Of a DNA stretch of 64,000 bases, positions 3,041-46,219 are shown piece by piece; within the stretch, counting starts at the first letter, position 1, and each line of letters begins with the position of its first letter. The translations under genes were made by a program, and so were the position numbers. The stretch comes from Methylogaea oryzae (GTDB taxonomy: Bacteria; Pseudomonadota; Gammaproteobacteria; Methylococcales; Methylococcaceae). The notes below the pieces were generated by a model. The model made no database searches. It was not told the DNA's origin and saw only the letters and a program-made list of their open reading frames with translations. The stretch spans positions 3,156,001-3,220,000 of the forward strand of contig NZ_AP019782.1 of NCBI RefSeq assembly GCF_019669985.1, read 5' to 3'.

Positions 3041-3071
3041 GGACAAAATAGATTCTTTCGAAGGACATCCC

Positions 3072-3329: not shown

Positions 3330-3588
3330 CCTGTCACGCGATGCGTTGGACTTCCTGAAGTCCTTGCCCGGCAAGCAGTACAAACAAGTGGTCGGCACGC
3401 TCTTCAAGCTGCTGGAGCTCCCGGAACCTCACGATTCCCAGCCGTTAAAAGGCTATTCCTATCGCCGGGTGGACATCGGCGAGTACCGCATCGTTTACAG
3501 CGTCCAAGAAGACGAACTGCGCATACCGCTGATCGGCAAGCGTAACGACGATGACGTGTACAAACGCTTGGAGCGCAAAGAAAACTAG
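3316..3588 (+). CDS. RelE/ParE-superfamily toxin
   Basis: A 90-residue protein starting MLKLNLSRDALDFLKSLP with the RelE/ParE core GYSYRRVDIGEYRIVYSV and a C-terminal basic segment (KRNDDDVYKRLERKEN). RelE members cleave mRNA on the ribosome and ParE members poison gyrase; the sequence does not settle which. The arrangement YRIVYSV...IGKRNDD is closer to RelE/YafQ-type plasmid toxins. The start at 3316 overlaps the antitoxin end by 14 bp, as is usual. The stop TAG (3586-3588) shares a CTAG palindrome with the stop of the convergent Hsp70 gene (3585-3587). Confidence 0.85.
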   Translation: MLKLNLSRDALDFLKSLPGKQYKQVVGTLFKLLELPEPHDSQPLKGYSYRRVDIGEYRIVYSVQEDELRIPLIGKRNDDDVYKRLERKEN

Positions 3589-5501: not shown

Positions 5502-6076
5502 AGTTCGACCTCCGCCGGCGCGACGATCTTCAGGTCATGGCCTTCCGCCATCTTCGGCAGGGACACGCCGGCGGCGCGCCAGCCCCGGTGCACCAGGGTG
5601 CCGCTGAACGGCGCTTCGCCGACGATATTACCGGTCAGCCGCACGGCGGAAGCGTCGAAGCCCTTGGGCAAGGTCACCCGCTCGCCTTCGGTCTCGCTGC
5701 GGATGGGCTCCAGTTGGAAGTGGCTTTTCAGCACCTTGCGGCAACCCTCGTGCACCACCCGCACGGCGGCGCCGATATCCGCATCGCCATAGCCGGCGAT
5801 GTCTTCCTGGAGGAAATCGATAAGGCGCGCCTCGCTTTGCAGCAGTCCCAGCAGCTGCAGCGCCGCATCGGGACCGGCCTCCTTGATGATCACCGGCGGC
5901 GGCGCGTGGCGCACCGGCTCGGCCACCGCCACCGGCGCCTGCTTGGCCTTGCGCACCGCCATCAACAGCGCCGGCACGATCAACAGCAGCAGCAAAGACA
6001 AACCGGCCAGGCTCACGTGCAGCAAGTCCAGGGTGGTGGGGAATAGGGTCAAATCAACGGGAATCGTGGCATCCAT
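5498..6076 (-). CDS. DUF2760 family membrane-anchored protein
   Basis: A 192-residue protein with one N-terminal hydrophobic segment (about 18-41, LLHVSLAGLSLLLLLIVPAL) and a soluble domain containing ALQLLGLLQSEARLIDFLQE and GYGDADIGAAVRVVHEGCR, which I recognise as DUF2760. The family is commonly encoded beside Hsp70 genes; its function is unknown. It is the first gene of the Hsp70 operon, overlapping the next start by ATGA. A plausible reading is a membrane tether or partner for the Hsp70 proteins, but nothing in the sequence proves it. Confidence 0.8.
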   Translation of the reverse strand: MDATIPVDLTLFPTTLDLLHVSLAGLSLLLLLIVPALLMAVRKAKQAPVAVAEPVRHAPPPVIIKEAGPDAALQLLGLLQSEARLIDFLQEDIAGYGDADIGAAVRVVHEGCRKVLKSHFQLEPIRSETEGERVTLPKGFDASAVRLTGNIVGEAPFSGTLVHRGWRAAGVSLPKMAEGHDLKIVAPAEVEL

Positions 6077-6187
6077 CGTTCAGCTCGAAAATCGTGGGTA
6101 GTGCAGCGGGGCGACATTGTAACCGGGGAAGCGGCAGATTCCGCAGCCTGCGGAGGCATCAGTGGGCCATGATTTGGGCCTAAAAAG

Positions 6188-6272
6188 TGGTGTGGAGGCC
6201 ATTCAACCACACCATCAAAGGTCGCGACCATTTAACCCACCCTCACCCTAGCCCTCTCCCGCAGGGAGAGGG
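6188..6272. repeat. Two inverted repeats between DUF2760 and emrA
   Basis: An 8-bp inverted repeat (TGGTGTGG 6188-6195, CCACACCA 6207-6214), then a member of the CCCTCTCCC-GCA-GGGAGAGGG family at 6252-6272. Neither is followed by a T run in either direction. This is the only copy of that family in the window that lies between genes. Confidence 0.7.
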
Positions 6273-6291
6273 GACCGGAAGCCCCTGCATT

Positions 6292-7488
6292 TTAACGAGA
6301 CAGACTTATATCCCTCTTGACGGCATTCCGCTCCACAATCCCCGCAATCAACGTATCCGCCCCTTCCAACTGCCGCGCGTAAACCTCGCTGCGGTAAGCC
6401 CCGTCCGGCACGGCGGTGGCCGGCTCCAGCACAGGACTTCCCGGCCGGCTCGTGTCGATGCGGGCGACCGCCGACAGCCCCGGCCGCAGCGGATGGGCCT
6501 TCAACTCCTCCGTATCCAGGCCGATGCGCACCGGCACGCGCTCGGCGATGTGGATGTAGTTGCCGCTGGCGTTGTCCGGCGGCAGCAGGCCGAACACGCT
6601 GCCGGTGCCGGGGTTCAGGCCCAGCACGCTGCCGTGGTAGACGACATGGGAGCCGTACAGGTCCACGCTCAGTTCCACCGGCTGGCCGGGGCGCACCTCG
6701 GTCAGGTCGCGCTCCAGAAAATTGGCGTCCACCCACAGGTAGTCCAGTGGCACGATGGCCATGAGCGGCGTTTCCGGGTGCACCGCTTCGCCGGGCTGGA
6801 TGGCGCGCTTGGCGATGTAGCCGGACACCGGCGCGACGATGTCCTGGCGCACCCGGTCGAGATAGGCGCGCTTCAAGGCGGCGGCGGCCTGCTTGACCTT
6901 GGGATGCTCGGCCACCGCCGTGCCCTGCACCAGGGCTTCGGCGCCCTGCAGTTCGGCGCGGATTTGCCGCGCGGCGGCTTCCAGCTCGCGCAACTGGAAT
7001 TCGGTGTCCTGCACCTGCTGGGCGGACACCGCTCCGTCGCCGCGCACGCTGCGGTAGCGGGCCAAGTCGCGGCGCACCCGCTCGGCCTGGGCTTCCTGGG
7101 CGGCCAGGCGCTGGCGCAGGGTTTCGGCGGCGCTGAACAGGGTTTCCACTTGGCGCACCGCTTCCGCCAGATCGGCCTCGGCCTTTTCCTGGGCCACCTG
7201 GGCGTTGAGGCCGTCCAGTCGCACCAGCACCTCGCCCTGGCGGACGAACTGGGTGTTGTCGGCGCGCACTTCCACCACCGTGCCGTCGGTTTGCGCCTTC
7301 AGGGGCACCAGGTTGCCGGCGACGTAGGCGTCGTTGGTGGTGACGTAGCGCGCCGCGTAGCCCCACCAGTAGGCGGCGAACGCCAATCCCGCCACGACGG
7401 CGACCGCCAGCACGACGCGCAGGCGGCGGATGCGCTGCCGGCGGGCGGAGTGGAAACGTCGTTTGCCGTGAATGGATGCAGTGGTCAT
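6292..7488 (-). CDS. emrA: HlyD/EmrA-family periplasmic adaptor of a tripartite efflux pump
   Basis: A 398-residue membrane fusion protein linking the inner-membrane exporter to the outer-membrane channel. Basic N-terminus, one membrane segment (about 23-43, LRVVLAVAVVAGLAFAAYWWG), then the EmrA-typical YVTTNDAYVAGNLVPL, the lipoyl/barrel half (DGTVVEVRADNTQFVRQGEVL), a long alpha-helical hairpin (about 85-195, rich in Ala, Glu, Gln) and the second half (IVAPVSGYIAKRAIQPGE). Length matches EmrA (about 390). It is last of three genes in order EmrB, outer-membrane factor, EmrA, 30 bp after the channel gene. Drug substrates cannot be told from sequence. Confidence 0.88.
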   Translation of the reverse strand: MTTASIHGKRRFHSARRQRIRRLRVVLAVAVVAGLAFAAYWWGYAARYVTTNDAYVAGNLVPLKAQTDGTVVEVRADNTQFVRQGEVLVRLDGLNAQVAQEKAEADLAEAVRQVETLFSAAETLRQRLAAQEAQAERVRRDLARYRSVRGDGAVSAQQVQDTEFQLRELEAAARQIRAELQGAEALVQGTAVAEHPKVKQAAAALKRAYLDRVRQDIVAPVSGYIAKRAIQPGEAVHPETPLMAIVPLDYLWVDANFLERDLTEVRPGQPVELSVDLYGSHVVYHGSVLGLNPGTGSVFGLLPPDNASGNYIHIAERVPVRIGLDTEELKAHPLRPGLSAVARIDTSRPGSPVLEPATAVPDGAYRSEVYARQLEGADTLIAGIVERNAVKRDISLSR

Positions 7489-7518
7489 GGTCGTAGGCCG
7501 CTCAGGCCGGGTTAAAGG

Positions 7519-8958
7519 TCAATGGATGTCGTTGCTGTCGAAACCGCCGCCCAGCGCTTCGATCAGCGCCACGGCGGCCTGCTGGTGTTCGCCCTGCAGC
7601 CGGCTCAGCTTCAAGCGCTGTTCCAGCAAGGCGGCGTCGGCGGCCAACAGCTCGTCGCGGGTGTTGAGGCCGGCCTGATCACGCCGCTGCGCCAGGGCCA
7701 AAGCCTGTTCCGCCGCCCGCACCGCCTGTTCCTGGGCGGCGTCCTGGGCGTGGCTGTCGCGCCATTCGGCCAGGGCGTCGGCCACCTGCTGCACCGCGCC
7801 CAGCAAGGCGGCGTTGTAGGCGTCCACCGCCGCGTCATAGCCGGCTTCGCCGTGGGACAGTTCCGCCTCCAGCCGGCCGCCTTCGAACAGCGGCAAGGTG
7901 ACGGTCGGTCCAATCGAATACGCCAGGCTGGAGCCGTGGGACAGGAACAGGTCCTTGAGGTTGATGCTGCGCAGGCCGGCGAAGCCCACCAGGTTCACGT
8001 CCGGATAGAAATTGGCCTTGGCCACTTTCACCCGCTGCGCCGCCGCCTCCGCCCGCCAGCGCGCCGCCGCCACGTCGGGGCGGTGGGCCAACAGCTCCAG
8101 CGGCAGCCTTTCCGGCAAGGGGAACGGCCCATGGAGGCCGCCATCCGCCACGGCGATGCCCTTGCCCCAGTCCGGGCCCTGGCCGGCCAGGGCCGCCAGG
8201 CGATGGCGCAACAGTTCGCTTTCCTTTTGCAGGGCGGCCAGGCGCTGGCGCGCCGCCGCCACGCCCTGTTCGGCGGCGCGGACCGGGTCCATGGCGGCCA
8301 AGCCTTTCTCCCAGCGCACGCGGGCCAGTTCCAGCACCGCCTCGGCCCGCCGCAGCAGGTCGCCGGCCAGGCGCGTTTCCTCCGCCGCGGCGCCCAGGCG
8401 GAAATAGGCCCGCGCTAGGTTAGTACTAAGGACCAAACGGGACACGGCCAGCTCCGCCGCCTGGGCCTTGGCATGGCCGAGGGCGGAATCCAGCGCGGCG
8501 CGGTCCTTGCCCCACAGGTCCAGGTGGTAGCGGAACACCACCGGGTCCAGATAGGCGGCATTCACCGTCTGCCCGCCCAGCGGCCCGAAGATGTCGTGCT
8601 CGGACACGTGCCAGCGCCGCACCGCCAGGCTGGCGCCGACGCTGGGCAGCATTTCCGCCGCCTGGTAATCGGCCAGGGACTGGGCCATGCGCAAGCGGTC
8701 AGCGGCGATGCGCAGGTCCGGGTTGCCTTGCAGGGCCGTGTCCATCAGCCGGTCCAGGCCGGGATTGCGGAATACCTGCCACCAGCGGGCATGGGGCCAG
8801 GCGTCGGCGCTGCGCTCCACCTCGTGGCCGGCGTCGCTTACGGTCTGCTCCAGCTGCGGCGTATCCATGAACTGGGCCTGGCTGCCGTCTTCCGGCAACA
8901 GGGCACAGCCGCCCAGCAAAGGCAGCAACATCAATAGAGATTGGGTACGCATGCTCAT
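7519..8958 (-). CDS. NodT/TolC-type outer-membrane efflux lipoprotein
   Basis: A 479-residue outer-membrane channel. The start is set at ATG 8958: it follows GGAGGAG, overlaps the emrB stop as ATGA, and gives a lipoprotein signal (MSMRTQSLLMLLPLLGGC, lipid Cys 18). The longer open frame upstream lies inside emrB in another frame and is rejected. Family traits: WWQVFRNPGLDRLMDTALQGN near the N-terminus, two outer-membrane-factor repeats with long helices, and PLFEGGRLEAELSHGEAGYDAAVDAY in the second (motifs abridged). It supplies the outer-membrane exit for the EmrAB-like pump. Confidence 0.88.
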   Translation of the reverse strand: MSMRTQSLLMLLPLLGGCALLPEDGSQAQFMDTPQLEQTVSDAGHEVERSADAWPHARWWQVFRNPGLDRLMDTALQGNPDLRIAADRLRMAQSLADYQAAEMLPSVGASLAVRRWHVSEHDIFGPLGGQTVNAAYLDPVVFRYHLDLWGKDRAALDSALGHAKAQAAELAVSRLVLSTNLARAYFRLGAAAEETRLAGDLLRRAEAVLELARVRWEKGLAAMDPVRAAEQGVAAARQRLAALQKESELLRHRLAALAGQGPDWGKGIAVADGGLHGPFPLPERLPLELLAHRPDVAAARWRAEAAAQRVKVAKANFYPDVNLVGFAGLRSINLKDLFLSHGSSLAYSIGPTVTLPLFEGGRLEAELSHGEAGYDAAVDAYNAALLGAVQQVADALAEWRDSHAQDAAQEQAVRAAEQALALAQRRDQAGLNTRDELLAADAALLEQRLKLSRLQGEHQQAAVALIEALGGGFDSNDIH

Positions 8959-20818: not shown

Positions 20819-21177
20819 GGGGGCGACTTGGCTTCGACGTGGATCGCGAAACCCTAGGTGCATGCCGAGGCGCAGAGGACCTCGTAAATCCAACTGCAAA
20901 CTTTATAGTTGCCAACGACGACAACTACGCTCTGGCTGCTTAAGTCAGCCAGCCTTCGTGAGAATGCCTGCTTATGGGCGTTCTTCTCGGGGGGCATCCA
21001 AGCATAAGCTACGCGGTGAGGTAGGTCCGGGACCGATCCGCTAAAACTTTTCGGAATCGCTGGTTGCGCTCCCTGCCCGTCGGGCAGCCGCCAGTTAAAT
21101 CAATAGACAGGGATAAGCATGTAGAGCCGAAGGCGGAGGGTTTGCGGACGCGGGTTCAATTCCCGCCGCCTCCACCA
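20819..21177 (+). ncRNA. ssrA: tmRNA
   Basis: Starts GGGGGCGACTTGGCTTCGACG-like (20819 onward, first 20 bases: GGGGGCGACTTGGCTTCGAC) and ends in a tRNA-like T arm GGGTTCAATTCCCGCCGCC and CCTCCACCA with encoded CCA at 21175-21177. The tag frame runs 20911-20943: GCC resume codon, peptide ANDDNYALAA, TAA. The upstream ATAGTTGCC matches the E. coli context ATAGTCGCA, which fixes the resume codon. The 3' end is the integration target of the adjoining element; the mature sequence is kept whole. A possible -10 (TATACT) lies at 20797-20802. Confidence 0.96.
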
Positions 21178-21178
21178 A
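21164..21178. repeat. attL core (ssrA 3' end)
   Basis: CGCCGCCTCCACCAA, the last 14 bases of tmRNA plus one. It matches 29791-29805 at 14 of 15 positions. Confidence 0.75.
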
Positions 21179-21212
21179 TTCAATATCTAGCAACATCCAA
21201 AGACACCTACCA

Positions 21213-21236
21213 AGCCCGCTAAATGCGGGCTTTTTT
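21213..21236 (+). terminator. Rho-independent terminator after tmRNA
   Basis: AGCCCGC-TAAAT-GCGGGCT followed by six T. It lies inside the element, so the element supplies a new terminator for ssrA; the presumed old one is at 29818. Confidence 0.85.
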
Positions 21237-21291
21237 GTTTATACTTCGTCCACTGGCGTCCAACAAGATGCCCCAACATCCCTGTGATTTT

Positions 21292-21340
21292 GGGGGCACA
21301 TACGGGGGCATAGGCTCATGCCCCCGGCGCGGATGCCCCC
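21292..21340. repeat. Arm-type integrase sites, left end (candidate)
   Basis: GGGGGCA at 21292-21298 and 21304-21310, then the reverse form TGCCCCC at 21319-21325 and 21334-21340. Two direct GGGGGCA copies with almost the same spacing lie near the right end (29709-29727). Such paired sites at both ends are typical of arm-binding sites of lambda-type integrases. Confidence 0.55.
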
Positions 21341-21381
21341 AAGCGACGCGCAAGCCGCATCACAACTGGACGGAGTAGGAC

Positions 21382-22569
21382 ATGCTAAACGATCCCGCCT
21401 GCAAAAATGCCAAGCCCAAGGAGAAACCCTACAGGCTGGCCGACGAGAAAGGGCTTTATCTGGAAGTCATGCCGAACGGCTCGAAATACTTCCGCATGAA
21501 ATACCGTTTCGGCGGCAAGGAGAAGCGGCTTGCTCTGGGCGTCTATCCAGAAACCGGACTCAAACTAGCCCGCGACAAGCGCGACGAGGCCCGCAAGCAA
21601 CTAGCCCAAAACATTGACCCTAGCCAAAACCGCAAGGCTATGAAAGCAGCGTTAGCGGCTGACGCTGACACGTTTGAAGTGGTAGCACGGGAATGGTTCG
21701 CCAAGAATGCGCCTACCTGGGCCGAAAATCACAGCAACCGCACTTTGCGCCGACTGGAAAGGGATATTTTTCCTTGGCTAGGAAATGCCCCCATTCGCAG
21801 CATTGATGCCCCCAGACTGCTTGGGGCACTTCGCCGAATCGAAAACAGGGGAGCCGTGGAAACCGCACACCGGGCCTTGCAGAACTGCGGGCAGATATTC
21901 CGCTACGCCGTTGCCACCAGCCGAGCAGAGCGAGACCCTACTGGTGACCTAAAGGGAGCGCTCACACCCGTCAAGGGAGGAAATTTTGCAGCGATGACCG
22001 ACCCGAAACAGGCGGCAGAATTGCTCCGGGCTATTGAGGCATACGAGGGCACCCTCCCCGTGCGTTGCGCCCTGAAACTGGCTCCGCTGGTTTTTGTCCG
22101 CCCCGGTGAGCTACGGCAGGCGGAATGGGCACACTTCAACCTTGACGCCGCAGAGTGGAGTTACGTTGTGACAAAAACCGGAACCCCGCATATTGTCCCG
22201 CTGGCAACTCAGGCCGTGGAAATTCTGCGCGAGCTTCATCCGCTAACCGGGCATGGTCGCTATGTGTTCCCCTCCGCGAGAACACCCAACGGCTCGCGGC
22301 CTATGTCAGACGTTGCTTTGCTGGCCGCCCTACGGCGCATGGGTTTTGGAAAAGATGAGATGAGCGTCCACGGCTTCCGGGCGCTAGCCCGCACCGTTCT
22401 TGATGAAGTCCTGGGCTTCCGTCCCGATTTCATCGAACACCAACTGGCCCATGCGGTGCGCGACCCCAACGGCCGAGCGTATAACCGTACAGCGCACCTT
22501 TCTGAACGCCGGAAGATGATGCAGCAATGGGCGGACTACCTCGAGCAGTTACGCGAAAGCCGAGGATAA
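21382..22569 (+). CDS. int: Tyrosine integrase (P4/DUF4102 type)
   Basis: A 395-residue site-specific recombinase. N-terminal arm-binding DUF4102 domain (about 1-85: KPYRLADEKGLYLEVMPNGS, KRLALGVYPETGLKLARDK), a core-binding domain (about 95-185) and the catalytic domain with RPGELRQAEW (Arg I), HGFRALART (His-x-x-Arg), HQLAHAV and YNRTAH (Tyr nucleophile). The frame is complete, so the enzyme may be active. Its position next to the ssrA 3' end is typical of tmRNA-targeting integrases. It is followed by a strong terminator at 22581. Confidence 0.95.
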   Translation: MLNDPACKNAKPKEKPYRLADEKGLYLEVMPNGSKYFRMKYRFGGKEKRLALGVYPETGLKLARDKRDEARKQLAQNIDPSQNRKAMKAALAADADTFEVVAREWFAKNAPTWAENHSNRTLRRLERDIFPWLGNAPIRSIDAPRLLGALRRIENRGAVETAHRALQNCGQIFRYAVATSRAERDPTGDLKGALTPVKGGNFAAMTDPKQAAELLRAIEAYEGTLPVRCALKLAPLVFVRPGELRQAEWAHFNLDAAEWSYVVTKTGTPHIVPLATQAVEILRELHPLTGHGRYVFPSARTPNGSRPMSDVALLAALRRMGFGKDEMSVHGFRALARTVLDEVLGFRPDFIEHQLAHAVRDPNGRAYNRTAHLSERRKMMQQWADYLEQLRESRG

Positions 22570-22580
22570 GCCCTCACTAA

Positions 22581-22605
22581 AGCCCGCCACCTGGCGGGCT
22601 TTTTT
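22581..22605 (+). terminator. Terminator after the integrase gene
   Basis: AGCCCGCCA-CC-TGGCGGGCT followed by a T run. Confidence 0.85.
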
Positions 22606-22840
22606 ATACAAAAAACTCCACAACAAGGAAGCTATCTATTCACCTTTAGGCAACTATAAGTTCCGTAGTGATTATTCATTATGACCGGGGCTGAAGTTGC
22701 ATGACTCGCCGTGAAATATGCCGGCTTATTGCCGTCGGCATCACGGCGGAAACTCGACTTTTTGGAAATCCCGCAGGAAGAGCGAAGCCAGCCAAGTTTT
22801 GAAAATGCGTCCCGGTTTTAACTGGACACACCGAGACCTT

Positions 22841-23038
22841 ATGAGCAACTTGAATCGCATCGTCCGCTTGCCGCAGGTAATGGACCTCACCGGGCTGGCT
22901 CGCAGCACAATCTACGCAAAAATCTCGTGCAACGACTTCCCGGGACCTATCCGCCTTGGTCCGCGCGCTGCCGGTTGGGTTTTAGCTGAAATAGAACAGT
23001 GGATTGCCGAGCGTATAAACGCCCGCAACGGCCAATAA
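22841..23038 (+). CDS. AlpA-family transcriptional regulator
   Basis: A 65-residue MerR/AlpA-type DNA-binding protein: RIVRLPQVMDLTGLARSTIY (recognition helix), then FPGPIRLGPRAAGWVLAEIE and WIAERI. AlpA proteins control excision or early genes of P4-like elements. ATG at 22841 is chosen because the AlpA fold begins there; an in-frame ATG at 22718 would add 41 residues unlike the family. First gene of the element's second transcription unit. Confidence 0.88.
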   Translation: MSNLNRIVRLPQVMDLTGLARSTIYAKISCNDFPGPIRLGPRAAGWVLAEIEQWIAERINARNGQ

Positions 23039-23056
23039 AAAAGGGATACCACCGAC

Positions 23057-23344
23057 ATGGCACCCCTTAAAAATACTTCCGCTCGCAAGTTTAAACAAAG
23101 AAAAAACGGGAATCAATCCACCCGTGAGCACCTTCCGTTTTTTCGAAAAGTTGCGAAGGCCCGTCAATACACGCCAGCCTGCGCAGCGATCTATCGCCTA
23201 TCCCACGAATTACTGAAGATCAGCCAAACTCAAGCAACCGCCATCCATTATTTGCGCCTGCTGAATGATGCAGGTCTTCCCAGGCTGCTGGTGGCTGAAA
23301 TTGTGACCGCCGCCGCATTGGTTCGTAAAGGCGGTGCAGCATGA
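23057..23344 (+). CDS. Unknown element protein
   Basis: A 95-residue basic protein, not recognised. It begins with a Lys/Arg-rich stretch (KFKQRKNGNQ) followed by a predicted helical part (LSHELLKISQTQATAIHYLRLL, in parts). It lies 18 bp after alpA and overlaps the next start by ATGA, so it belongs to the same operon leading to the primase. A small replication or regulatory accessory is a guess. Confidence 0.6.
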   Translation: MAPLKNTSARKFKQRKNGNQSTREHLPFFRKVAKARQYTPACAAIYRLSHELLKISQTQATAIHYLRLLNDAGLPRLLVAEIVTAAALVRKGGAA

Positions 23345-23688
23345 AGCGTCCACCGTTTGAAGCCCGGGATTTTGGGAAGCCACTGGAAAAGGGTCTGGTC
23401 CGCGCCTGGGGGGCTTGTGCAACCCACATCGTTACACCGCGCCCTGCGCAATTTCTGAGCGAAGCCCACCGGCACGCCTGCACGCAATATATGGCCTGGT
23501 GGCTGCTGCGGATGGTTTTCACGTCCAAACGGGTGAATCCTCGTTATAACCGGATGCGCATTGCCGCCACACTGGCAACTTGGGCGCACCTAGCACCGCC
23601 AGATGCGCCTTGCCCGCTTGACCGGCTGGCATTCGAGCGGATGGCGATTGATGCGCTGCACCTCCTGAAAATGAGGGGTGAAGTATGA
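23341..23688 (+). CDS. Unknown element protein
   Basis: A 115-residue protein, not recognised. Basic and aromatic (YMAWWLLRMVFTSKRVNPRY), rich in Ala and Leu at the C-terminus. It overlaps both neighbours by ATGA, which suggests translational coupling of the three genes up to the primase. Confidence 0.6.
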   Translation: MKRPPFEARDFGKPLEKGLVRAWGACATHIVTPRPAQFLSEAHRHACTQYMAWWLLRMVFTSKRVNPRYNRMRIAATLATWAHLAPPDAPCPLDRLAFERMAIDALHLLKMRGEV

Positions 23689-26081
23689 GTGCGCCCGCAA
23701 AAAACAACGTGCCGCCAATCGCCGATGATGCCGCGCGCTATGTTTCCGAGTACGGAATCCACATCGTCCCGCTGCCGCCTCGCATGAAGCGGCCGAAAGT
23801 TGACGATTGGGGGCTACCGTGCAATCTGCTGAGCACGCCCGAAGCCGCCCGCGCCCACTATCTGGCAAACCCTTCTAAGAACCTGGGGGCGGCTCTGGGA
23901 CCCTCAAGGCTTTGCTCACTCGACATTGACGACGCCGAAGCATTCCACCTGATCTGCGCTGAATTCGGCTGGAGCCTCGCCGACCTAACCGCCGCCCACC
24001 CGACCATTCAAGGCCAGGCCCCTGGTGTGCGCGTAATGTTCCGCGTGCCCGAGGGAGAAACGCTGCCATACCACGCGCTTACCTGGCCGAAGCGCGAGAG
24101 CAAAGGCCGTTTCACCGTGTTCGAGGTGCGTGCAGCCGATGAACAGCAGCGGCAGGACGTGCTGCCGCCTTCAATCCACCCGGATACAGGCAGCCCCTAC
24201 ACCTGGATCACGCCACCCGAGGCCGTACAAGGCTTCAGCGAACCGCCGCGCTGGCTGCTGGCCTTGTGGAACAACTGGGCCGCCCTGAAGCCGCAGCTTG
24301 AGGCCGTATGCCCTTGGGCACCGTGCCGGCTACCCAAGACGACCGCCAAGCCGCGAGTGCAGCAGGCCGGGGATAGCGTCATTGACGCCTACAACGCGGC
24401 CCACAGCATCGAATCCGCGCTGTCCCGCTACGGCTACACCGGGCAGGGCCGCCGCTGGCTGTCCCCGCACAGCACCACGGGCCTGCCTGGCGTCAATCTG
24501 ATCGGCGACAACCGGACGTTTATTCATCATGCATCGGACCCGCTGTGCTCGACCGAATCGGGCCAGCCTGTCGCGCCGTTTGATCTGTTCCGGCACTACG
24601 AGCACGGCAATGACGTTAGCGCCGCCGTCCGCGCCGCAGCCTCTGAACTAGGCATGCGATCCACACCGAGGGCACCAGCTAGCAGGATCGACAAGGACAC
24701 CGGGGAAATCATCCCGGCGAATGACAACGACCTACCCGAACATCGCAAGGTGGTTGCCGAATTGAACCAAAGCCATGCCCTGGTTCTGACCGGCGACAAG
24801 GTGGTGGTGCTGCGCGAAACTATCGGCGAGCGCGACGGCAAGGAAGTGCTGTATCTCTCAACGAGTGCTTTCAAGACCTGGTACATGAACCGCACCGCCG
24901 CCGTGGAGGCGACCGACAAGAACGGCAAGGCGATCACCAAGCATGTGCCGATTTCTGATCTGTGGCTGAAATCGCCCGAGCGCCGCCAGTATGAGGGCGT
25001 AACGTTCGCGCCGGCCAAAAATGCGCCAAGCAGCTACTACAATTTGTGGTCCGGGTTCACTGCCGAGCCGGTTGATTGCACGCTGGCCCGCGCCGCCATG
25101 AAGTGCCGCCGCCTGCTGTCGCACATGAAATTCAACCTGTGCGGTGGTAACAAGCGGTATTTCCGCTACTTGCTGGCATGGGCCGCCGACATGGTGCAAG
25201 ACCCTGACCGGAAGAAGGGCGTGGCGCTGGTTATGCGCGGCCTGAAGGGCACCGGTAAATCGACGTTCGCTGAAGCGCTTTCGGCACTGCTGGGGCGACA
25301 CGCCATGAGCGTTTCGCACATGCGCCACCTGACTGGCAACTTTAACCGCCACCTGGCCGACAAGCTGCTGATTGTTGCAGAGGAATCCTACTGGGCGGGC
25401 GACAAGGCCGACGAAGGGCCGCTGAAACACATGATTACCAGTGACCGCCTGACTATCGAGGCCAAGGGAATCGACGCGGTGGAAATGCCTTCGTTGTGCC
25501 GGATCATGATGATTACGAACAACGAATGGGCAGCGCCGGCAAGCAGCGACGAACGCCGCTATTTCGTGCTGGACGTGAGTGACCGCCACCGACAGGACTT
25601 CGCATATTTTCAGGCGATCAAGGACCAATTGGACAAGGGCGGGCTGGCCGCGCTGCTGACGCTGCTGCTGAAGTTCCCGCTTCATTCCGTCCAGTTGCGC
25701 CAAGTGCCGGAAACCGAAGCCCTGCGCAAGCAACGCGCCTTGAGCCTGGAGCCGCACGACCAGTTTGTTTTCGATGCGCTTTCTGACGGCGTGCTGGTTG
25801 GCAAGGAATGGGACGGACCGCTGGAGGTTGGCAAGGACGCGCTGTATGACGCCTACGTGGGGGCCAGCCGCAAGCGCGGAAAGCTGCACCTTCTGGACAA
25901 GGCACGTTTCGCCAAGAAGTTCATCAACGCGACCGGCGCAACGTCCGCCAAGCTGCGCGACGGTTACAACCGCGTGCCTTCGTACCGTGTTCCGGGATGG
26001 GCTGCTGCCTCCGTCAATTTTCAGAAGTGCTGCGGTGTCGATGTTGAGCGCATCGAAGAAGAAGACGACCGCCCGTATTAA
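23685..26081 (+). CDS. Primase-polymerase/helicase replication protein
   Basis: A 798-residue two-part replication protein. The N-terminus (about 10-210) resembles Prim-Pol domains: ARYVSEYGIHIVPLPPRMKR, acidic LDIDD (about 84-88), GVRVMFRVPEG. The C-terminus (about 480-680) is a phage-type superfamily 3-like helicase (DUF5906): Walker A GLKGTGKST (about 519-527), LLIVAEESYW, LTIEAKGIDAVE, ITNNEWAAPASSDERRYFVLD. It is comparable in build to the alpha protein of P4, which primes and unwinds at its own origin. A terminator (26100) and a GGWCC repeat array follow directly, a plausible origin. Confidence 0.85.
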   Translation: MSAPAKNNVPPIADDAARYVSEYGIHIVPLPPRMKRPKVDDWGLPCNLLSTPEAARAHYLANPSKNLGAALGPSRLCSLDIDDAEAFHLICAEFGWSLADLTAAHPTIQGQAPGVRVMFRVPEGETLPYHALTWPKRESKGRFTVFEVRAADEQQRQDVLPPSIHPDTGSPYTWITPPEAVQGFSEPPRWLLALWNNWAALKPQLEAVCPWAPCRLPKTTAKPRVQQAGDSVIDAYNAAHSIESALSRYGYTGQGRRWLSPHSTTGLPGVNLIGDNRTFIHHASDPLCSTESGQPVAPFDLFRHYEHGNDVSAAVRAAASELGMRSTPRAPASRIDKDTGEIIPANDNDLPEHRKVVAELNQSHALVLTGDKVVVLRETIGERDGKEVLYLSTSAFKTWYMNRTAAVEATDKNGKAITKHVPISDLWLKSPERRQYEGVTFAPAKNAPSSYYNLWSGFTAEPVDCTLARAAMKCRRLLSHMKFNLCGGNKRYFRYLLAWAADMVQDPDRKKGVALVMRGLKGTGKSTFAEALSALLGRHAMSVSHMRHLTGNFNRHLADKLLIVAEESYWAGDKADEGPLKHMITSDRLTIEAKGIDAVEMPSLCRIMMITNNEWAAPASSDERRYFVLDVSDRHRQDFAYFQAIKDQLDKGGLAALLTLLLKFPLHSVQLRQVPETEALRKQRALSLEPHDQFVFDALSDGVLVGKEWDGPLEVGKDALYDAYVGASRKRGKLHLLDKARFAKKFINATGATSAKLRDGYNRVPSYRVPGWAAASVNFQKCCGVDVERIEEEDDRPY

Positions 26082-26099
26082 TCGAGAACCAAACCCAAC

Positions 26100-26125
26100 A
26101 ACCCGCCCGCATGGCGGGTTTTTTT
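26100..26125 (+). terminator. Terminator after the primase gene
   Basis: AACCCGCC-CGCAT-GGCGGGTT followed by a T run. Confidence 0.85.
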
Positions 26126-26130
26126 CGCCT

Positions 26131-26404
26131 GGTCCGGGTACGCACCCGGACCACCCAATTTACCCGGACCGGCGAAACCCGCATGAATACTGGGCTGGTC
26201 CGGGTGGTCCATGTGGGCCGGGTATTTTTAACCAAATCGCTGTGAGAAATTGCAGACCAGTTTCGATGCTGTAACACAGCGCACCATCCCACCTTTTTAC
26301 CGACTTTGATTTTTACCTGGACCACCCGGACCACCCGGACCAAGCCAGTAATGGCAAGGGGTTCAGCGGTCCGGGTATTTTTTTCTACCTGGACCACATG
26401 GACC
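26131..26404. repeat. GGWCC repeat array, candidate replication origin or operator field
   Basis: Eleven GGACC/GGTCC sites in 274 bp between the primase and the winged-helix gene: 26131, 26148, 26166, 26197, 26206, 26319, 26328, 26337, 26368, 26391, 26400. Three clusters are exactly 9 bp apart (26197/26206; 26319/26328/26337; 26391/26400), with the fuller unit GGACCACCC. Both orientations occur; a 108-bp AT-richer spacer without sites (26211-26318) separates the halves. This stretch has no gene. Confidence 0.7.
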
Positions 26405-26751
26405 ACATGACGGACAGACAACAGACTGCCGACCTGCTGCGCCTGGTGCTGAACGTGTCTAGGCTGCTGGGAAAGAAGCGCACCGCGTCAAATGCTGATG
26501 ACCTGCTGCTGGTGGCTGGTGTGGCGGTAGGGCAGGCAGAAGGCAAGCCGATGAAGGCGGGCAAGGGGGCGCTGTATGTTGGCATGCCAAGGGCCACCAC
26601 AATCAGGAAGCTGAGGGAGTTGGAAGCGCGGGGCGTGGTGCGTGTCCTTCCTGGTGGGCAGTATGTCCTGGGCAGCGCATTGGATAGCGAGAAGGCCACA
26701 GAAGCGATGCAGGCGGCAGTGGCGCGTGGTGGCTACCGGCAAGCCCAGTGA
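26398..26751 (+). CDS. Small winged-helix DNA-binding protein (putative)
   Basis: A 117-residue protein whose middle looks like a winged helix: TTIRKLRELEARGVVRVLPG then QYVLGS as the wing. The N-terminus is helical (DLLRLVLNVSRLLGKKR). ATG at 26398 and 26407 are both possible; both lie in the last units of the GGWCC array, so the protein could control its own gene by binding the array. Family not recognised. Confidence 0.55.
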   Translation: MDHMTDRQQTADLLRLVLNVSRLLGKKRTASNADDLLLVAGVAVGQAEGKPMKAGKGALYVGMPRATTIRKLRELEARGVVRVLPGGQYVLGSALDSEKATEAMQAAVARGGYRQAQ

Positions 26752-27000
26752 GGACGCGAGCCACCTAGAGCATCGCGGGTCCCATTCAGGCCGTATGCCT
26801 GGCGGGTGTAACGTACCCATGTAGCTAACCATTTCCGAGGGCTTCAAAAACGACTACCAAACTTCCAAGAGGTGAAATCCCGCAGGAAGAACACCCCCGA
26901 ACACCGTGGCATTATTCGAGGAAATCCCCGCAAGTGGATAGCCTCGAATGACCGGCGACACTGGCGGAACCCTTTCAACTACTGAGAAATCCGCCACTTT
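26752..27000. promoter_or_regulatory. Leader of the capsid-like gene with repeats
   Basis: No gene. It holds GAAATCCCGCAGGAAGA (about 26873-26889), also present before alpA (about 22765-22782), a looser copy GAAATCCCCGCAAG (26921-26934), and an 8-bp inverted repeat ATTCGAGG (26914-26921)/CCTCGAAT (26942-26949) enclosing it. A regulatory or DNA-packaging site is possible. Confidence 0.4.
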
Positions 27001-27960
27001 ATGAAACGCCAAGCCCTTTTTGATGCAGTCAAGACCCGCAGCCTTCGCAGCATGCTGACGGAAGTCGAATCCGCGCCGAACGTTGAAACCCACACGCCCA
27101 CCGGCTACCACGAGCCGACCCACCGCATCCCGGTAACGCCCGCCGTTGTCGGCACTGTGTCCCTGGATGGCGAAACCCTGCCGGCTGCAACTGCTGCCGA
27201 AGCCCTGGGCCTTCACTATCAGCCGCTGGCCGATGGCAGCGTGGGCCAGCTTGTGAAGCTGTCGCACTTGGTGGTCAAGCATTCCCGCTTTTGTGAAGCC
27301 GGCGGCAATCTGGTGCTAGCCAACCAAGCCCCGAAGGGCACCACTCAAGCCGGCGGCGATCCTGGCTTTTACACCCGTCCCGAGCGTTTGCGCCTGATTA
27401 AACCCGCCGCCTTCTCCCTGCTGGGCGATGGCCTGGAAGTGGCCGAAACCGACTACCCCGCCAAAGAGCTGGAAGTGAAGATTGGCGACGCCGCCAACTA
27501 CTCCGTTTTCTTCAAGGTGACGCGCAAGAGCCAAAAGAGCCTGGCCCCTGACCTGCTGGCCTACGAAATCGCGCTGGCCGTTTCGCGTGGTGTGGCTAAC
27601 CTGGTGGACAAAATCATGCTGGAGGCAATCAAGGCCGCCGCGCCCGGCGCGTTCAGTCTGGGCACCCTGGCCGGCAATGACGTGCGGATTGACGAACTGC
27701 GCGCCATTGTGGGCACCAATGCTGCCGGTGCTGCCTGGCGCGGCGATGGCATGTTTACCGCTGCCAACATCCCCGCCGAACTAGCCCCCGCCATTCCTGA
27801 AACCGTGGCCGGCGCATTCAATCGCGCCTTTGTCGTACTGAGTGACGAAACCCGCATAGTGCTGCGTCGGAATGACGTACTTGGCGCAATGGACGTGCTG
27901 TGCCACGTAAACGTCAAACCCGGCCTGGTGGACAAGGCCTTCTTCGGCATGGTGGCTTGA
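27001..27960 (+). CDS. HK97-like major capsid protein (putative)
   Basis: A 319-residue protein that reads like a phage major capsid protein of HK97 fold. After a variable N-terminus: PERLRLIKPAAFSLLGDGLE, a beta-rich stretch (ELEVKIGDAANYSVFFKVTR), a long helix (LLAYEIALAVSRGVANLVDK, spine helix candidate) and a C-terminal half ending VVLRRNDVLGAMDVLCHVNV. The match is to pattern, not to a named sequence. No scaffold, protease or portal gene is beside it. Its start has no strong ribosome-binding site. Alternatives: another oligomeric structural protein of the element. Confidence 0.5.
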   Translation: MKRQALFDAVKTRSLRSMLTEVESAPNVETHTPTGYHEPTHRIPVTPAVVGTVSLDGETLPAATAAEALGLHYQPLADGSVGQLVKLSHLVVKHSRFCEAGGNLVLANQAPKGTTQAGGDPGFYTRPERLRLIKPAAFSLLGDGLEVAETDYPAKELEVKIGDAANYSVFFKVTRKSQKSLAPDLLAYEIALAVSRGVANLVDKIMLEAIKAAAPGAFSLGTLAGNDVRIDELRAIVGTNAAGAAWRGDGMFTAANIPAELAPAIPETVAGAFNRAFVVLSDETRIVLRRNDVLGAMDVLCHVNVKPGLVDKAFFGMVA

Positions 27961-27961
27961 A

Positions 27962-28324
27962 ATGTTGGGCATATTTAAACGCCGCAAGGCTGCACCCGAA
28001 GCCGTAGAAGCCCTACCCCTGAGCGTGGAATCCGCTCTGTGTGGCCTGTCGGTGATAAGCCGGCCCGATAGCGAAGGCAGCCCGCGCACGCTGCTGCAAT
28101 GGGTGACCGATGGCGGGGTTGCCTCCTGGTATCACAACACGGACACCACCCGCGCCCGAATGGCCGAGGCGTTCCCTGCCCTGACATCTATTCAGCTTGA
28201 CCAGGCTTGCCTTGCTGTGGCCGGCCTGGTGCGCGCCGCGCAATCCGAAGGGCCAGCACCTTCTCGCCGCCGCAGTGAGTGGGCCAGCTGGAAGCCGATC
28301 CGCAGCATTGAAGAACTCCACTGA
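27962..28324 (+). CDS. Unknown element protein after the capsid-like gene
   Basis: A 120-residue protein starting 1 bp after the capsid-like stop. Basic start (MLGIFKRRKAAPE), a middle with LLQWVTDGGVASWYHNTDTT and a helical LDQACLAVAGLVRAAQ, ending in a Trp-rich tail. Not recognised. Position after a capsid gene makes a head-related role possible but unproven. Confidence 0.55.
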   Translation: MLGIFKRRKAAPEAVEALPLSVESALCGLSVISRPDSEGSPRTLLQWVTDGGVASWYHNTDTTRARMAEAFPALTSIQLDQACLAVAGLVRAAQSEGPAPSRRRSEWASWKPIRSIEELH

Positions 28325-28333
28325 GCACACGCC

Positions 28334-28525
28334 ATGAAAACCGAAACCCACGACGACAAGCAAACCAAAGTGACCGTAGTTGCTGGCCGTGAACTGCTGG
28401 ACAGCATCAAACGCCACCGCGAAAGCCTGCGTAGCCTGACCGGCTTGAGTGTGAGCATGTCCGCCGCCGCTGCTGCGCTAATCCGCGCCGGCCTGGATGC
28501 GAAGCGCGCCGCACAAGGCCACTAG
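28334..28525 (+). CDS. Small ribbon-helix-helix-like protein (putative)
   Basis: A 63-residue protein: TKVTVVAGRELLDSIKRHRE as a possible beta strand and first helix, LTGLSVSMSAAAAALIRAGL as second helix. The pattern suits small CopG/Arc-type repressors. It starts 9 bp after the previous gene. Confidence 0.5.
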   Translation: MKTETHDDKQTKVTVVAGRELLDSIKRHRESLRSLTGLSVSMSAAAAALIRAGLDAKRAAQGH

Positions 28526-28622
28526 CTTTTGGTCAACACTGCCCGCGCTGGTGTTCCTCTCGTACTGCCGGCGAAGCGCGGCCCCCTCCAGGTGGGTGGC
28601 AGGAACCTGAGACAAAAGGCTG

Positions 28623-28655
28623 TGTGGGGCCTAAATGCTCCCCCTGTGGGGCCTA
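28623..28655. repeat. Two direct repeats 22 bp apart, operator-like
   Basis: TGTGGGGCCTA at 28623-28633 and 28645-28655. The 22-bp period is two helical turns, so a protein would meet both on one DNA face. They lie in the 215-bp gap (28526-28740) that separates the capsid block from the Nu1 block. Confidence 0.45.
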
Positions 28656-28740
28656 CACCGTAACCCGGCGCGCACAGGGAGCCGGGACCTTTTCCGCCGT
28701 GACACTGCGGCCAAATATCTGACAGCCTGAGGGCCGAGCA

Positions 28741-28950
28741 ATGATCTACGACACCATTTCCCGCTTGGCGGGCTACTGGGCGGAAATGCCCTTCAGAAAA
28801 AAGCCCACCACCGAACCCCTAGCCCCCGCAAAGCCCACCCCAAAAGCCGGCCGCCGCCGCAAGCTGAAGGCCAAGGGATGCGCCTACCGTGGCCCCGCGC
28901 GCCTGGACGCTGACCGCCCGATTCTGGGCCAAATGCGTAGCAATGGTTGA
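28741..28950 (+). CDS. Small basic protein (uncertain)
   Basis: A 69-residue frame: MIYDTISRLAGYWAEMPF then a Pro/Lys/Arg-rich tail (KPTPKAGRRRKLKAKG). It ends 8 bp inside the Nu1-like gene. Not recognised; it could be spurious, but the start follows the gap with the paired repeats. Confidence 0.4.
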   Translation: MIYDTISRLAGYWAEMPFRKKPTTEPLAPAKPTPKAGRRRKLKAKGCAYRGPARLDADRPILGQMRSNG

Positions 28951-29422
28951 AAGCATCCCGCCACAAACCCTGGTGACAGACGCCACGCTGGCCGCCCTGA
29001 CCGGCGTGTCATCGCGACGCATCCGCCAGTTGGCCGAGGCCGGCACTCTGGAGCGCGTGGAGCGTGGCCGCTACGAGCTGGGGCCGAGCATCCGCGCGCT
29101 GCTGGACGATGCCGCCGACAAGGGAAGCGAGCTGCAACGCGAGCGCACGCGCAAGGTGCGCGCCGATGCTGACCTGGCTGAACTGGAATTGGCACGTCAG
29201 AAGGGCTTGGTGGCCCCGGTAGAGCAATTTGAAAAGGTATGGGGCCACCGCTGCCGGCTAATTCAGATAACCATGATGCAGCTCCCGCAGCGCGTAATTA
29301 CTGCACTCGTCGGGGAGACCAACGAGCGCCGCATAAAGGATGTTCTAACCGCAGAAATCAAAGACGCCCTGAACCGGGCCGCCGATTCTGTCCCCACCCC
29401 TGAGGAAATCGAAGAGCTATGA
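28943..29422 (+). CDS. Nu1-like terminase small subunit (putative)
   Basis: A 159-residue protein from ATG 28943. The N-terminus is a winged-helix like lambda Nu1: TDATLAALTGVSSRRIRQLA then GRYELGPSIRALL. A charged helical middle follows: RKVRADADLAELELARQKG with LVAPVEQFEKVW, typical of Nu1/DNA-packaging proteins. Small terminases select DNA for packaging; in PICI satellites a own small subunit redirects the helper phage's large subunit to satellite DNA. No large subunit is encoded here, which fits that strategy. It overlaps the next gene by ATGA. Confidence 0.7.
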   Translation: MVESIPPQTLVTDATLAALTGVSSRRIRQLAEAGTLERVERGRYELGPSIRALLDDAADKGSELQRERTRKVRADADLAELELARQKGLVAPVEQFEKVWGHRCRLIQITMMQLPQRVITALVGETNERRIKDVLTAEIKDALNRAADSVPTPEEIEEL

Positions 29423-29625
29423 AAAAGATGACCGTAGCCCAAGCTGAACGAAACGCCGCTGTGTTCCTGCTGCCGCCGCGTGCGACTGAAGCGGAACGCG
29501 CCGAAGAATTGGCAGAAGCGACAAAGCTAATGCGCACCGCTACCGAAAAGCTGGTGCGCGCTGGCCGTGATGACCTAGCGCTGGCTGCCCAGCTGGTTGC
29601 GATCAAATCCAACGACAGCGGGTGA
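29419..29625 (+). CDS. Small helical protein, last gene of the element
   Basis: A 68-residue, Ala/Glu/Arg-rich protein (ERAEELAEATKLMRTATEKL), almost fully helical, coupled to the Nu1-like gene by ATGA. Not recognised. Confidence 0.5.
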   Translation: MKKMTVAQAERNAAVFLLPPRATEAERAEELAEATKLMRTATEKLVRAGRDDLALAAQLVAIKSNDSG

Positions 29626-29708
29626 CGCACAACAGCCCCCCCCCCAGTCCAGAACGTTGCTCAATCGCGCACGTGGAAAAATTTTACCAACCTTGGAACA
29701 GCAAACAC

Positions 29709-29727
29709 GGGGGCATTTACGGGGGCA
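29709..29727. repeat. Arm-type integrase sites, right end (candidate)
   Basis: GGGGGCA twice (29709-29715 and 29721-29727) separated by TTTAC, almost the same as the pair at 21292-21310 (separator CATAC). Confidence 0.55.
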
Positions 29728-29790
29728 TAAACGAAGCGTAACAAATAAAAATAATTATAAAACCATAGCCTACAACAGTGTTTCGGTAGT

Positions 29791-29805
29791 CGCCTCCTCC
29801 ACCAA
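29791..29805. repeat. attR core (ssrA remnant)
   Basis: CGCCTCCTCCACCAA, 14 of 15 matching the ssrA 3' end. It is what remains of the original tmRNA terminus, or an element-borne copy. Confidence 0.72.
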
Positions 29806-29817
29806 CTTAAACGAAAA

Positions 29818-29845
29818 GGGCTGCCTGAAAGGGCGGCCCTTTTTG
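29818..29845 (+). terminator. Probable original ssrA terminator
   Basis: GGGCTGCC-TGAAAG-GGCGGCCC (one G-T pair) followed by TTTTT, 13 bp beyond attR. Its place relative to attR is what a terminator of the intact ssrA gene would have. Confidence 0.75.
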
Positions 29846-30094
29846 TTTACCCGCGGGGCGGGTTCACTCCATCGCCCGAAGCGATCTTGAACAGCCGGAG
29901 ACTGGCCCCGAAAGGATGCGGGCCAAGGACGAGCCGCCTAGCGCCTTCCTCCGGGCGCCCTGTTTCCGGCGCATTTTCGCTCCCTGCCACCCGCCTAAAT
30001 TTTTGCGAGAAACGACCCCGCACCGCAGCCGCCTGGTTTCGGCGCGACAGCCTTTCCTTGGCTAATATCAAAGGATGAACAAAGAGAATCAACG

Positions 30095-45987: not shown

Positions 45988-46117
45988 GCTGACAAGTCCG
46001 GCAATCCGCCGTTCCACTGGCAGTGGAAAGCGCTCCAACGCGCTTTCCGCTTTCGGCCGCACAGAAAAACCGTGCCGACCGCTCAAGAAAACCATGCCTA
46101 GCTAAATTCACGCCGTG

Positions 46118-46194
46118 CCGCCGAGGGGCGCTGCAACCCCGAAAACTACGGGGCCAGGCTCGGTGGCAAGCGTTTCATCAACGCAACGGCGCCC
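46118..46194 (+). promoter_or_regulatory. SAH riboswitch
   Basis: The leader of ahcY contains CCGAGGGGCGCTGCAACCCC, a GGGGC/CCCCG stem, CCAGGCTCGG and a final CAACGGCGCCC. The CGAGG...GCGCUGCAAC core with later GGCUCGG and the pseudoknot partner is the S-adenosylhomocysteine riboswitch (RF01057 type). SAH binding is known to switch on ahcY. It ends 25 bp before the ATG, so ribosome-binding-site access is the likely mechanism. Confidence 0.88.
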
Positions 46195-46219
46195 GTTCAT
46201 TCTCTTGGAGACCACTCGA

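What the first reader, a model, noticed from the sequence alone, without database searches (positions are those of the whole stretch)
21164..29805. Satellite-like element integrated in the ssrA 3' end
Direct repeats of 15 bp (one mismatch) frame an all-plus-strand gene set: integrase, AlpA, primase/helicase, capsid-like protein, small terminase, and small unknown genes, but no portal, large terminase, protease, tail or lysis genes. That suits a phage satellite needing a helper, in a methylotroph where such elements are little described.
Basis: partly seen in the sequence, partly recalled or inferred. Interest (0 to 1): 0.85.

Follow-up and report, generated by a model that had tools for sequence, protein, structure and literature searches.

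The report
Phage satellite with own capsid-like gene
An 8.6-kb stretch of DNA sits in the end of a housekeeping RNA gene of a methane-oxidising bacterium; it looks like a parasite of bacterial viruses, and its unusual capsid-like gene recurs in similar-sized parasites of very different bacteria, including circular ones in gut bacteria.

Summary
ssrA (20819-21177) is followed by an 8,627-bp, all-plus-strand island between repeats matching at 14 of 15 bases. Arm-like sites lie at both ends, and a same-genus genome shows the empty site. Order: integrase, AlpA, two unknowns, primase-helicase, iteron origin, wHTH, capsid-like protein, 120-aa protein, ribbon-helix-helix-like protein, lambda-type small terminase. 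No portal, large terminase, tail or lysis gene was found. Best reading: a helper-dependent satellite built like a Gram-negative PICI.

New: the capsid-like protein matches no Pfam, PHROG or NCBIfam family and no record among 50,697 phages. It recurs, with the 120-aa gene downstream, in Vreelandella, a second genome of its family, Paracoccus, E. coli chromosomes (64 match; fis site in four inspected) and five circular enterobacterial records. A low-confidence model matches mainly HK97-fold capsids. Thirteen measured elements span 8.1-9.6 kb. The small terminase, present in 4 of 15 loci, shares its DNA-binding half with enterobacterial satellites and its other half with lambda-type phages. Likely work: it remodels a helper's capsid and redirects a gpA-type terminase. 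Excision, helper and particle are untested.

The parts
20819..21177 (+). ssrA (tmRNA), integration target
   Evidence: ARAGORN; Rfam RF00023, 225 bits
21164..21178 (+). left attachment repeat (attL), inside the ssrA 3' end
   Evidence: sequence; only two sites within 2 mismatches in the window
21213..21239 (+). hairpin plus T-run brought by the element; would replace the displaced ssrA terminator
   Evidence: read directly from the sequence; a similar stretch lies after ssrA in relative G019
21292..21312 (+). left arm-type repeat pair (putative integrase arm site)
   Evidence: 0 in 100 shuffles, pattern taken from the window; same motif at both ends of L016 and L020
21382..22569 (+). tyrosine integrase, 395 aa
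   Evidence: PF13356, PF22022, PF00589; phrog_1 E 8e-62; 54-55% identical to L015 (same element as L016) and L020 integrases
22841..23038 (+). AlpA-family excisionase/regulator, 65 aa
   Evidence: PF05930 E 2.7e-21
23057..23344 (+). unknown, 95 aa
   Evidence: no family in Pfam, PHROGs, NCBIfam or PADLOC
23341..23688 (+). unknown, 115 aa
   Evidence: no family in Pfam, PHROGs, NCBIfam or PADLOC
23685..26081 (+). primase-helicase, 798 aa (Prim-Pol plus DUF5906)
   Evidence: PF09250 and PF19263; phrog_1156 E 1.4e-79
26131..26395 (+). putative replication origin: nine ACCYGGACC iterons in two clusters around a lower-GC stretch
   Evidence: 9 of the 14 window matches lie here; shuffle mean 0.94 per window; repeats; GC dip 26225-26274
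26398..26751 (+). winged-helix-like protein, 117 aa
   Evidence: weak HTH matches below cut-off (HTH_Crp_2 E 0.0025); a CARF model over 32 residues
27001..27960 (+). capsid-like protein (cap), 319 aa, putative HK97 fold
   Evidence: no family; homologues; model and fold searches; leave-one-out profile E 2.8e-48
27962..28324 (+). o120, conserved partner directly downstream of cap, 120 aa
   Evidence: E 5e-11 to L005; leave-one-out profile E 1.4e-8
28334..28525 (+). ribbon-helix-helix-like protein, 63 aa
   Evidence: syntenic relatives, (leave-one-out E 1.2e-5); the fold name is my reading of the alignment
28741..28950 (+). small ORF, 69 aa, unknown, overlaps the terS start
   Evidence: ORF only; no PADLOC match
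28943..29422 (+). small terminase (TerS), 159 aa from ATG 28943
   Evidence: phrog_57 E 1.2e-28 (scanned from 28952); translation; 57% identical over 142 columns to TerS of L005 and L012
29419..29625 (+). small ORF, 68 aa, unknown
   Evidence: only weak matches
29709..29729 (+). right arm-type repeat pair
29791..29805 (+). right attachment repeat (attR)
29809..29854 (+). displaced host ssrA terminator, close behind ssrA in congener G016

Best explanation
An integrated, helper-dependent phage satellite that works like a Gram-negative PICI. Shown by sequence: an int/AlpA element between att repeats in ssrA, a primase next to an iteron array, a capsid-like gene with its fixed partner o120, and a small terminase without a large one. 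Inferred: a helper phage with a lambda-type (gpA) terminase switches on AlpA. Int and AlpA excise the island from ssrA, and the primase-helicase replicates it from the iteron origin. Cap, an HK97-fold capsid paralogue, enters or replaces part of the helper's shell and sets a small head. The satellite TerS keeps the C-terminal half that phage TerS proteins share but has its own DNA-binding half, so it brings the satellite end site to the helper's gpA. Tails and lysis come from the helper.
For: att repeats, arm sites and empty site. Int, AlpA, primase and TerS families. Iteron origin 3' of the primase, as described for Gram-negative PICIs (PMC6092414 section 6). Same order (integrase, HTH regulator, small gene, primase, cap, 107-aa gene, small gene, TerS) in an E. 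coli chromosome at fis. cap is followed by o120 in 15 of 15 cap sources put into the profile search (for the members picked by position see the leave-one-out test). TerS N-terminal 60 residues: 32 of 60 identical to L005 and L012, against 8-14 of 45-60 for 16 other viral-contig TerS; the next 86: 50 of 86 for the satellites, 24-38 of 85-86 for those contigs. In 16 of 16 of those contigs a 645-678-aa ORF follows TerS directly, and 8 of 8 tested are gpA. In the predicted viral library 14 matches reach E 0.001; 8 bear a name, all capsid proteins. The 50 PDB rows shown (of 394) are titled as phage or virus particles or encapsulins, SaPIbov5 and P4 procapsids among the first twelve. The 13 measured sizes span 8,113-9,573 bp.
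Against: No excision, helper, particle or transfer data. The cap model is poor (mean pLDDT 53, pTM 0.57), no PDB match reaches E 0.001, Z is 7.0 at most, a level that the tool calls unsafe, and a cap profile finds no capsid among PDB sequences. TerS is not a constant part: of 15 cap sources it is clear in four (window, L005, L012, L016) and weak in L017; of 65 matching E. coli genomes 17 cover the TerS-bearing stretch to 80% or more. The Paracoccus element also holds a head-closure connector relative (L017 12583-12993, phrog_55 E 7e-15) and an Ant antirepressor, so not every relative is free of structural genes. The own genome has no gpA terminase, so no resident helper of that type. In EcCICFT073 deleting the capsid gene did not affect transfer by resident prophages, and all packaged DNA was phage-sized (PMC6092414 section 13).
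Confidence: 0.8

Rival explanations
1. Decayed prophage or packaging remnant: a lambda-like phage that lost most of its genes.
For: TerS is related to phage TerS; capsid-like and integrase genes are phage-type; the Paracoccus relative holds a head-closure relative.
Against: The window's genes are open and on one strand, att and arm sites are precise, and the same cap-o120 module recurs in hosts of different orders and classes at 8.1-9.6 kb. The cap family was not met in any phage record.
Confidence: 0.06
2. Satellite of the concatemer type: Cap does not set head size, and several copies are packed in a full-size helper head, as reported for PICMIs.
For: E. coli relatives sit at fis, the PICMI site; int, AlpA and a DUF5906 primase are the PICMI core (PMC10803314 passages); one plasmid form is a dimer of 8,691.
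Against: PICMIs carry no gene for capsid remodelling by description, whereas here cap-o120 is the most constant part. The narrow size range would be left unexplained.
Confidence: 0.15
3. Capsid-forming satellite: Cap alone builds a complete small shell (about T=3 by volume scaling) and takes only portal, protease and tail from the helper.
Against: cf-PICIs encode all proteins for their capsid and packaging (PMC12409344 passage); here no portal, protease or connector was found. Scaling by volume is rough.
Confidence: 0.2
4. The cap-like protein is an encapsulin-like or defence protein, not a virion part.
For: Encapsulins are among the fold matches; satellites often carry defence genes (recalled).
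Against: It lies within about 1.5 kb of TerS in the window, L005, L012 and L016, and no PADLOC model matches it.
Confidence: 0.07

Closest known systems
Gram-negative PICIs (EcCICFT073, PmCI172; PMC6092414)
   Same: Order int, AlpA-type regulator, primase with iteron origin, then a capsid homologue; the EcCICFT073 record shows this layout.
   Different: Capsid gene of a different sequence family (no relation by profile), 8.6 kb, in ssrA.
SaPIbov5 Ccm (PMC8569155)
   Same: A single capsid-protein homologue carried by a satellite as the head-shaping gene.
   Different: Ccm resembles the capsid protein of its helper phage (abstract and passages); four members of the Cap family found no relative in 50,697 phage records.
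PICMI (PMC10803314)
   Same: int, AlpA and a DUF5906 primase; small size; E. coli relatives of this family also use fis.
   Different: This one is in ssrA and carries TerS and a capsid-like gene.
cf-PICI
   Same: Satellite with a capsid gene; the top VIA-align row is the EcCI2 capsid (Z 7.0, rmsd 7.4, 170 aligned), tied with the rows just below it.
   Different: No portal, protease, connector or large terminase found here.
tmRNA-integrated islands of Pseudomonas (I55; PMC12595487)
   Same: Same target, 14-bp repeat, integrase and AlpA (passages).
   Different: Those share an 18-kb region and carry defence systems; no capsid-TerS module is mentioned in the passages I read.

Membership tests
Gram-negative PICI | int at the left end, alpA, then primase, all transcribed rightward | tested here: met
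   criteria from PMC6092414
[quoted passage not shown]
   the central stretch is only moderately AT-rich (38-48% GC)
Gram-negative PICI | capsid morphogenesis gene and/or terS (some members) | tested here: met
   TerS phrog_57 E 1.2e-28; capsid by fold only
Gram-negative PICI | att site not used by temperate prophages of the species | not tested
   ssrA use by prophages of this host was not surveyed
Gram-negative PICI | induction and packaging by a helper phage | not testable with these tools
   needs culture
cf-PICI | encodes all proteins for its own capsid and for packaging | tested here: not met
   no portal, protease, connector or TerL match in the ten element proteins scanned; definition from PMC12409344 passage
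PICMI | integration next to fis | tested here: not met
   ssrA
PICMI | int, AlpA and DUF5906 primase | tested here: met
   (the DUF3987 part of the PICMI primase model did not match)
PICMI | no capsid-remodelling gene | tested here: inconclusive
   a capsid-like gene is present, but its fold rests on a low-confidence model
Ccm-type capsid redirectors | HK97 fold | tested here: inconclusive
   consistent matches but low model confidence
Ccm-type capsid redirectors | sequence homologue of a helper phage capsid protein | tested here: not met
   no match in 50,697 phage records with four family members as tblastn queries; the helper itself is unknown and may be absent from the collection
P4-like satellites | psu, delta, sid and epsilon genes (list recalled) | tested here: inconclusive
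   no such family among the matches of ten proteins; not searched one by one

The most novel reading that the evidence does not exclude
cap-o120 founds a so far undescribed satellite lineage whose capsid protein has lived apart from phages long enough to lose every sequence trace of them. It sets one fixed small head that holds a single genome of 8-9.6 kb (T=3-like), and each element swaps integrase, primase, TerS and tail gene around this constant core, up to integrase-less circular forms in enterobacteria.
Probability: 0.3. Interest if true: 0.78.

Novelty: new variant of a known kind. Interest (0 to 1): 0.62.

Why it matters
One capsid-like family recurs in satellite-like elements of a methanotroph, two genomes of the Vreelandella family, Paracoccus and enterobacteria, with no phage relative met, a fixed partner gene and a narrow genome size. 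That makes the question of how a satellite-borne capsid protein shapes a foreign head testable in E. coli, where 64 of 5,426 complete genomes have a chromosomal match that the annotation mostly calls hypothetical proteins.

Tried and rejected
Single-sequence folding of Cap was useless (pLDDT 34.8). A profile of nine Cap sequences found no capsid among PDB sequences, and a comparison with the EcCICFT073 capsid gave nothing. Scans with the window protein alone found nothing in genome contigs or viral contigs; alignments found two and three loci. A second alignment scan gave the same three, and one from L016 gave none. I looked for a shared end site (cos-like) between the window's non-coding stretches and nine relatives: no convincing match. 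The region 28526-28740 folds no better than shuffles (z 0.41). A resident helper with a gpA terminase was sought in the own genome: none; other terminase types were not sought. The 33-bp ssrA-like match at 2,770,737 of the own genome lies beside no relative of the element's proteins and no tRNA. The stretches after ssrA in G022 and G019 share none of the window's element proteins by blastp. PADLOC gave only weak matches: AbiEi, to the TerS DNA-binding half, and a CARF model over 32 residues of the 117-aa protein. Pfam's AbiEi_4 passes its cut-off on TerS, so an AbiEi-like reading of that half alone is not excluded. The check whether 16 other TerS contigs carry cap covers only the 5-12 kb held of each. 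One search covered 34 sources, not all loci fetched. A7 and A8 held members that I had picked by position, so I repeated the test leaving each out; for o120 the weakest left-out case is L017 (E 1.2e-5), and from enterobacterial members alone L017 is E 0.03. The 16 TerS contigs include pairs or groups with equal scores (for example L048/L049, L050/L051, L053/L055, L060/L061), so they are not independent.
Full report
Setting. The window is 3,156,001-3,220,000 of a complete 4.02-Mb genome. Two AMO/pmoA-family genes lie elsewhere in it, so the host is very likely a methanotroph.

The boundaries. ssrA runs 20819-21177. Its last bases and 29791-29805 match at 14 of 15 positions, and no other place in the window comes within two mismatches. 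Just inside each end lies a pair GGGGGCA-N5-GGGGGCA (21292-21312, 29709-29729), not met in 100 shuffles (the pattern was made from the window). The same motif stands at both ends of two relatives, L016 in a tRNA-Ser and L020 in a tRNA-Lys, whose integrases are 54-55% identical to the window's (L015 is the same element as L016). I read it as the integrase's arm site. In the same-genus genome G016 a terminator stretch starts 17 bases behind ssrA; its counterpart in the window lies behind the right repeat (46 bp at 83%). This is an empty site, though in another species.

The genes. Integrase, AlpA and Prim-Pol/DUF5906 primase are clear. The small terminase is a strong PHROG match (phrog_57, E 1.2e-28); Pfam's Nu1 model is below its cut-off and AbiEi_4 above it for the N-terminal half. 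Nine of the window's fourteen ACCYGGACC matches sit in 265 bp behind the primase, in two clusters around a lower-GC stretch. That is the layout described for origins of Gram-negative PICIs (PMC6092414 section 6, read). None of the ten proteins scanned gave a portal, large terminase, protease, tail or lysis family.

The capsid-like protein. It has no family in Pfam, PHROGs or NCBIfam. Searches with four family members against 50,697 phage records gave nothing. In 72,556 plasmid records there were five hits: four circular records of about 9 kb and one dimer. They carry the same neighbours: cap, a 104-107-aa gene, a 53-54-aa gene. Of 5,426 complete E. coli genomes, 65 match the module, 64 of them on chromosomes. 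The 60 of 65 rows listed all start at cap. The four chromosomal copies I opened are integrated beside fis, and all four also carry a tape-measure gene. Seventeen of the 65 cover at least 80% of the query that runs from cap past TerS. Wider surveys show how rare it is: 1 of 38 genomes of the family, 1 of 369 of the class and 2 of 398 of the phylum have it, the window's own genome included in each. So do 2 of 201 in the family of the second find, that find included, and 1 of 385 around Paracoccus, its own genome. Genome contigs gave Vreelandella maris (L016) and Paracoccus siganidrum (L017). Leave-one-out profiles recover Cap in each of four left-out lineages (E 2.8e-48 to 1.4e-83) and o120 directly downstream (E 1.2e-5 to 3.3e-14).

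Fold. With six sequences AlphaFold2 gave mean pLDDT 53 and pTM 0.57. The predicted viral library gave 14 matches at E 0.001 or better; 8 of the 14 bear a name, all capsid proteins. In the PDB list the 50 rows shown (of 394) are titled as phage or virus particles or encapsulins, best E 6.5e-3, with SaPIbov5 and P4 procapsids among the first twelve. VIA-align's top row is the cf-PICI EcCI2 capsid (Z 7.0, rmsd 7.4, 170 aligned), below the level at which that tool trusts a single match. The agreement of the lists is the argument, not any one score. That these capsids and encapsulins share the HK97 fold is recalled.

The small terminase. A scan of viral contigs with the TerS alignment gave 17 loci, one of them the satellite L012. 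In the other 16, TerS overlaps a 645-678-aa ORF, and all eight that I tested are gpA large terminases; two of two further ORFs tested are lambda-family portals. Against these 16 the window TerS shares 8-14 of 45-60 residues in the first 60 and 24-38 of 85-86 in the next 86. Against the satellite TerS of L005 and L012 it shares 32 of 60 and 50 of 86. L016 behaves like the phages in the first part (12 of 60). The simplest reading is a satellite-type DNA-binding half joined to a helper-type large-terminase-binding half; the function of the halves is recalled from lambda Nu1, not tested. TerS is not constant: of 15 cap sources it is clear in four and weak in L017.

Modularity and size. Replication genes differ (Prim-Pol/DUF5906 here, VapE at fis, PriCT-2/Toprim/VapE in the plasmid L003; no ORF of primase length between integrase and cap in L016 and L020). 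Integrases and sites differ, the tape-measure gene was seen only in the enterobacterial forms, and TerS comes and goes. The Paracoccus element also holds a head-closure connector relative and an Ant antirepressor. cap plus o120 stays. Sizes from att to att, or of circles, are 8,113 to 9,573 bp in 13 measured cases, one of them half of a dimer; L010, L011 and L065 were not measured. The cases include close relatives, so they are not 13 independent points.

How it likely works. See the best explanation. Shown: parts, order, homology, empty site. Inferred: induction, excision, head remodelling, gpA partnership. Two rivals stay open: head made wholly of Cap, or concatemers in a full-size head. For caution: deleting the capsid gene of EcCICFT073 did not affect transfer by resident prophages, and packaged DNA was phage-sized (PMC6092414 section 13), whereas PmCI172, which encodes a capsid homologue, causes small heads (passage).

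Literature. PMC6092414: passages and sections 5, 6, 13; PMC10803314, PMC12987554, PMC11773190, PMC8569155, PMC12409344, PMC12595487: abstract starts and passages only; others: search listings. Nine searches did not show a paper on this capsid family or on 9-kb circular satellites of this kind; most subscription papers are not held, so this is no proof that it is unpublished. PMC12987554 reports satellite-encoded tape-measure proteins in chimeric tails and putative ones in some cf-PICIs (passages), which is the likely sense of the tape-measure gene in the enterobacterial relatives.

Verdict. It is a new variant of a known kind, a PICI-like satellite, made interesting by a capsid-like family that was met here only on satellite-like elements.

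Noticed in passing
L003 1-9138, L002, L005, L006 (plasmid records): Circular ~9-kb records annotated as non-mobilizable plasmids in E. coli, Salmonella and Proteus carry cap-o120, a tape-measure gene and a primase (PriCT-2/Toprim/VapE in L003) but no listed integrase, and L003 and L005 have no spare ORF of integrase length: they look like phage satellites living as plasmids.
   Followed up: partly
L004 1-17382: The E. coli plasmid record pECQ4552_IHU03 is a head-to-tail dimer of an 8,691-bp satellite (99.96% over 8,438 bp): true dimer or assembly artefact.
   Followed up: partly
L007 11731-14019, L065 9928-12213: fis-site E. coli satellites carry a tape-measure protein, which could make chimeric tails as reported for PLE11.
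   Followed up: no
L017 12583-12993 and 13585-14427: The Paracoccus cap element holds a head-closure connector relative (phrog_55, E 7e-15) on the minus strand and an Ant antirepressor.
   Followed up: no
L045 (G019), stretch after ssrA: A relative in the family has, after ssrA, a stretch 71% similar over 153 bp to the left end of the window's element but none of its proteins: possible scar of a former ssrA element.
   Followed up: partly
L043 (G022) around 1080-8530: 27 bases of the ssrA 3' end are repeated about 7 kb downstream in another relative, perhaps framing a different island.
   Followed up: partly
L041 (G1363 C51): ssrA 3'-end sequence occurs at two places close together and again about 3.5 kb on: perhaps repeated integration.
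   Followed up: no
window 46117-46201: SAH riboswitch (61.5 bits) outside the element.
   Followed up: no
window 29636-29645: Run of ten C bases in the non-coding stretch before the right arm site.
   Followed up: no
L016 11482-11955: The Vreelandella element ends with a protein matching a late transcriptional activator family (phrog_836, E 2.3e-7, scanned as L015 8145-8615), a possible switch on helper late genes.
   Followed up: no
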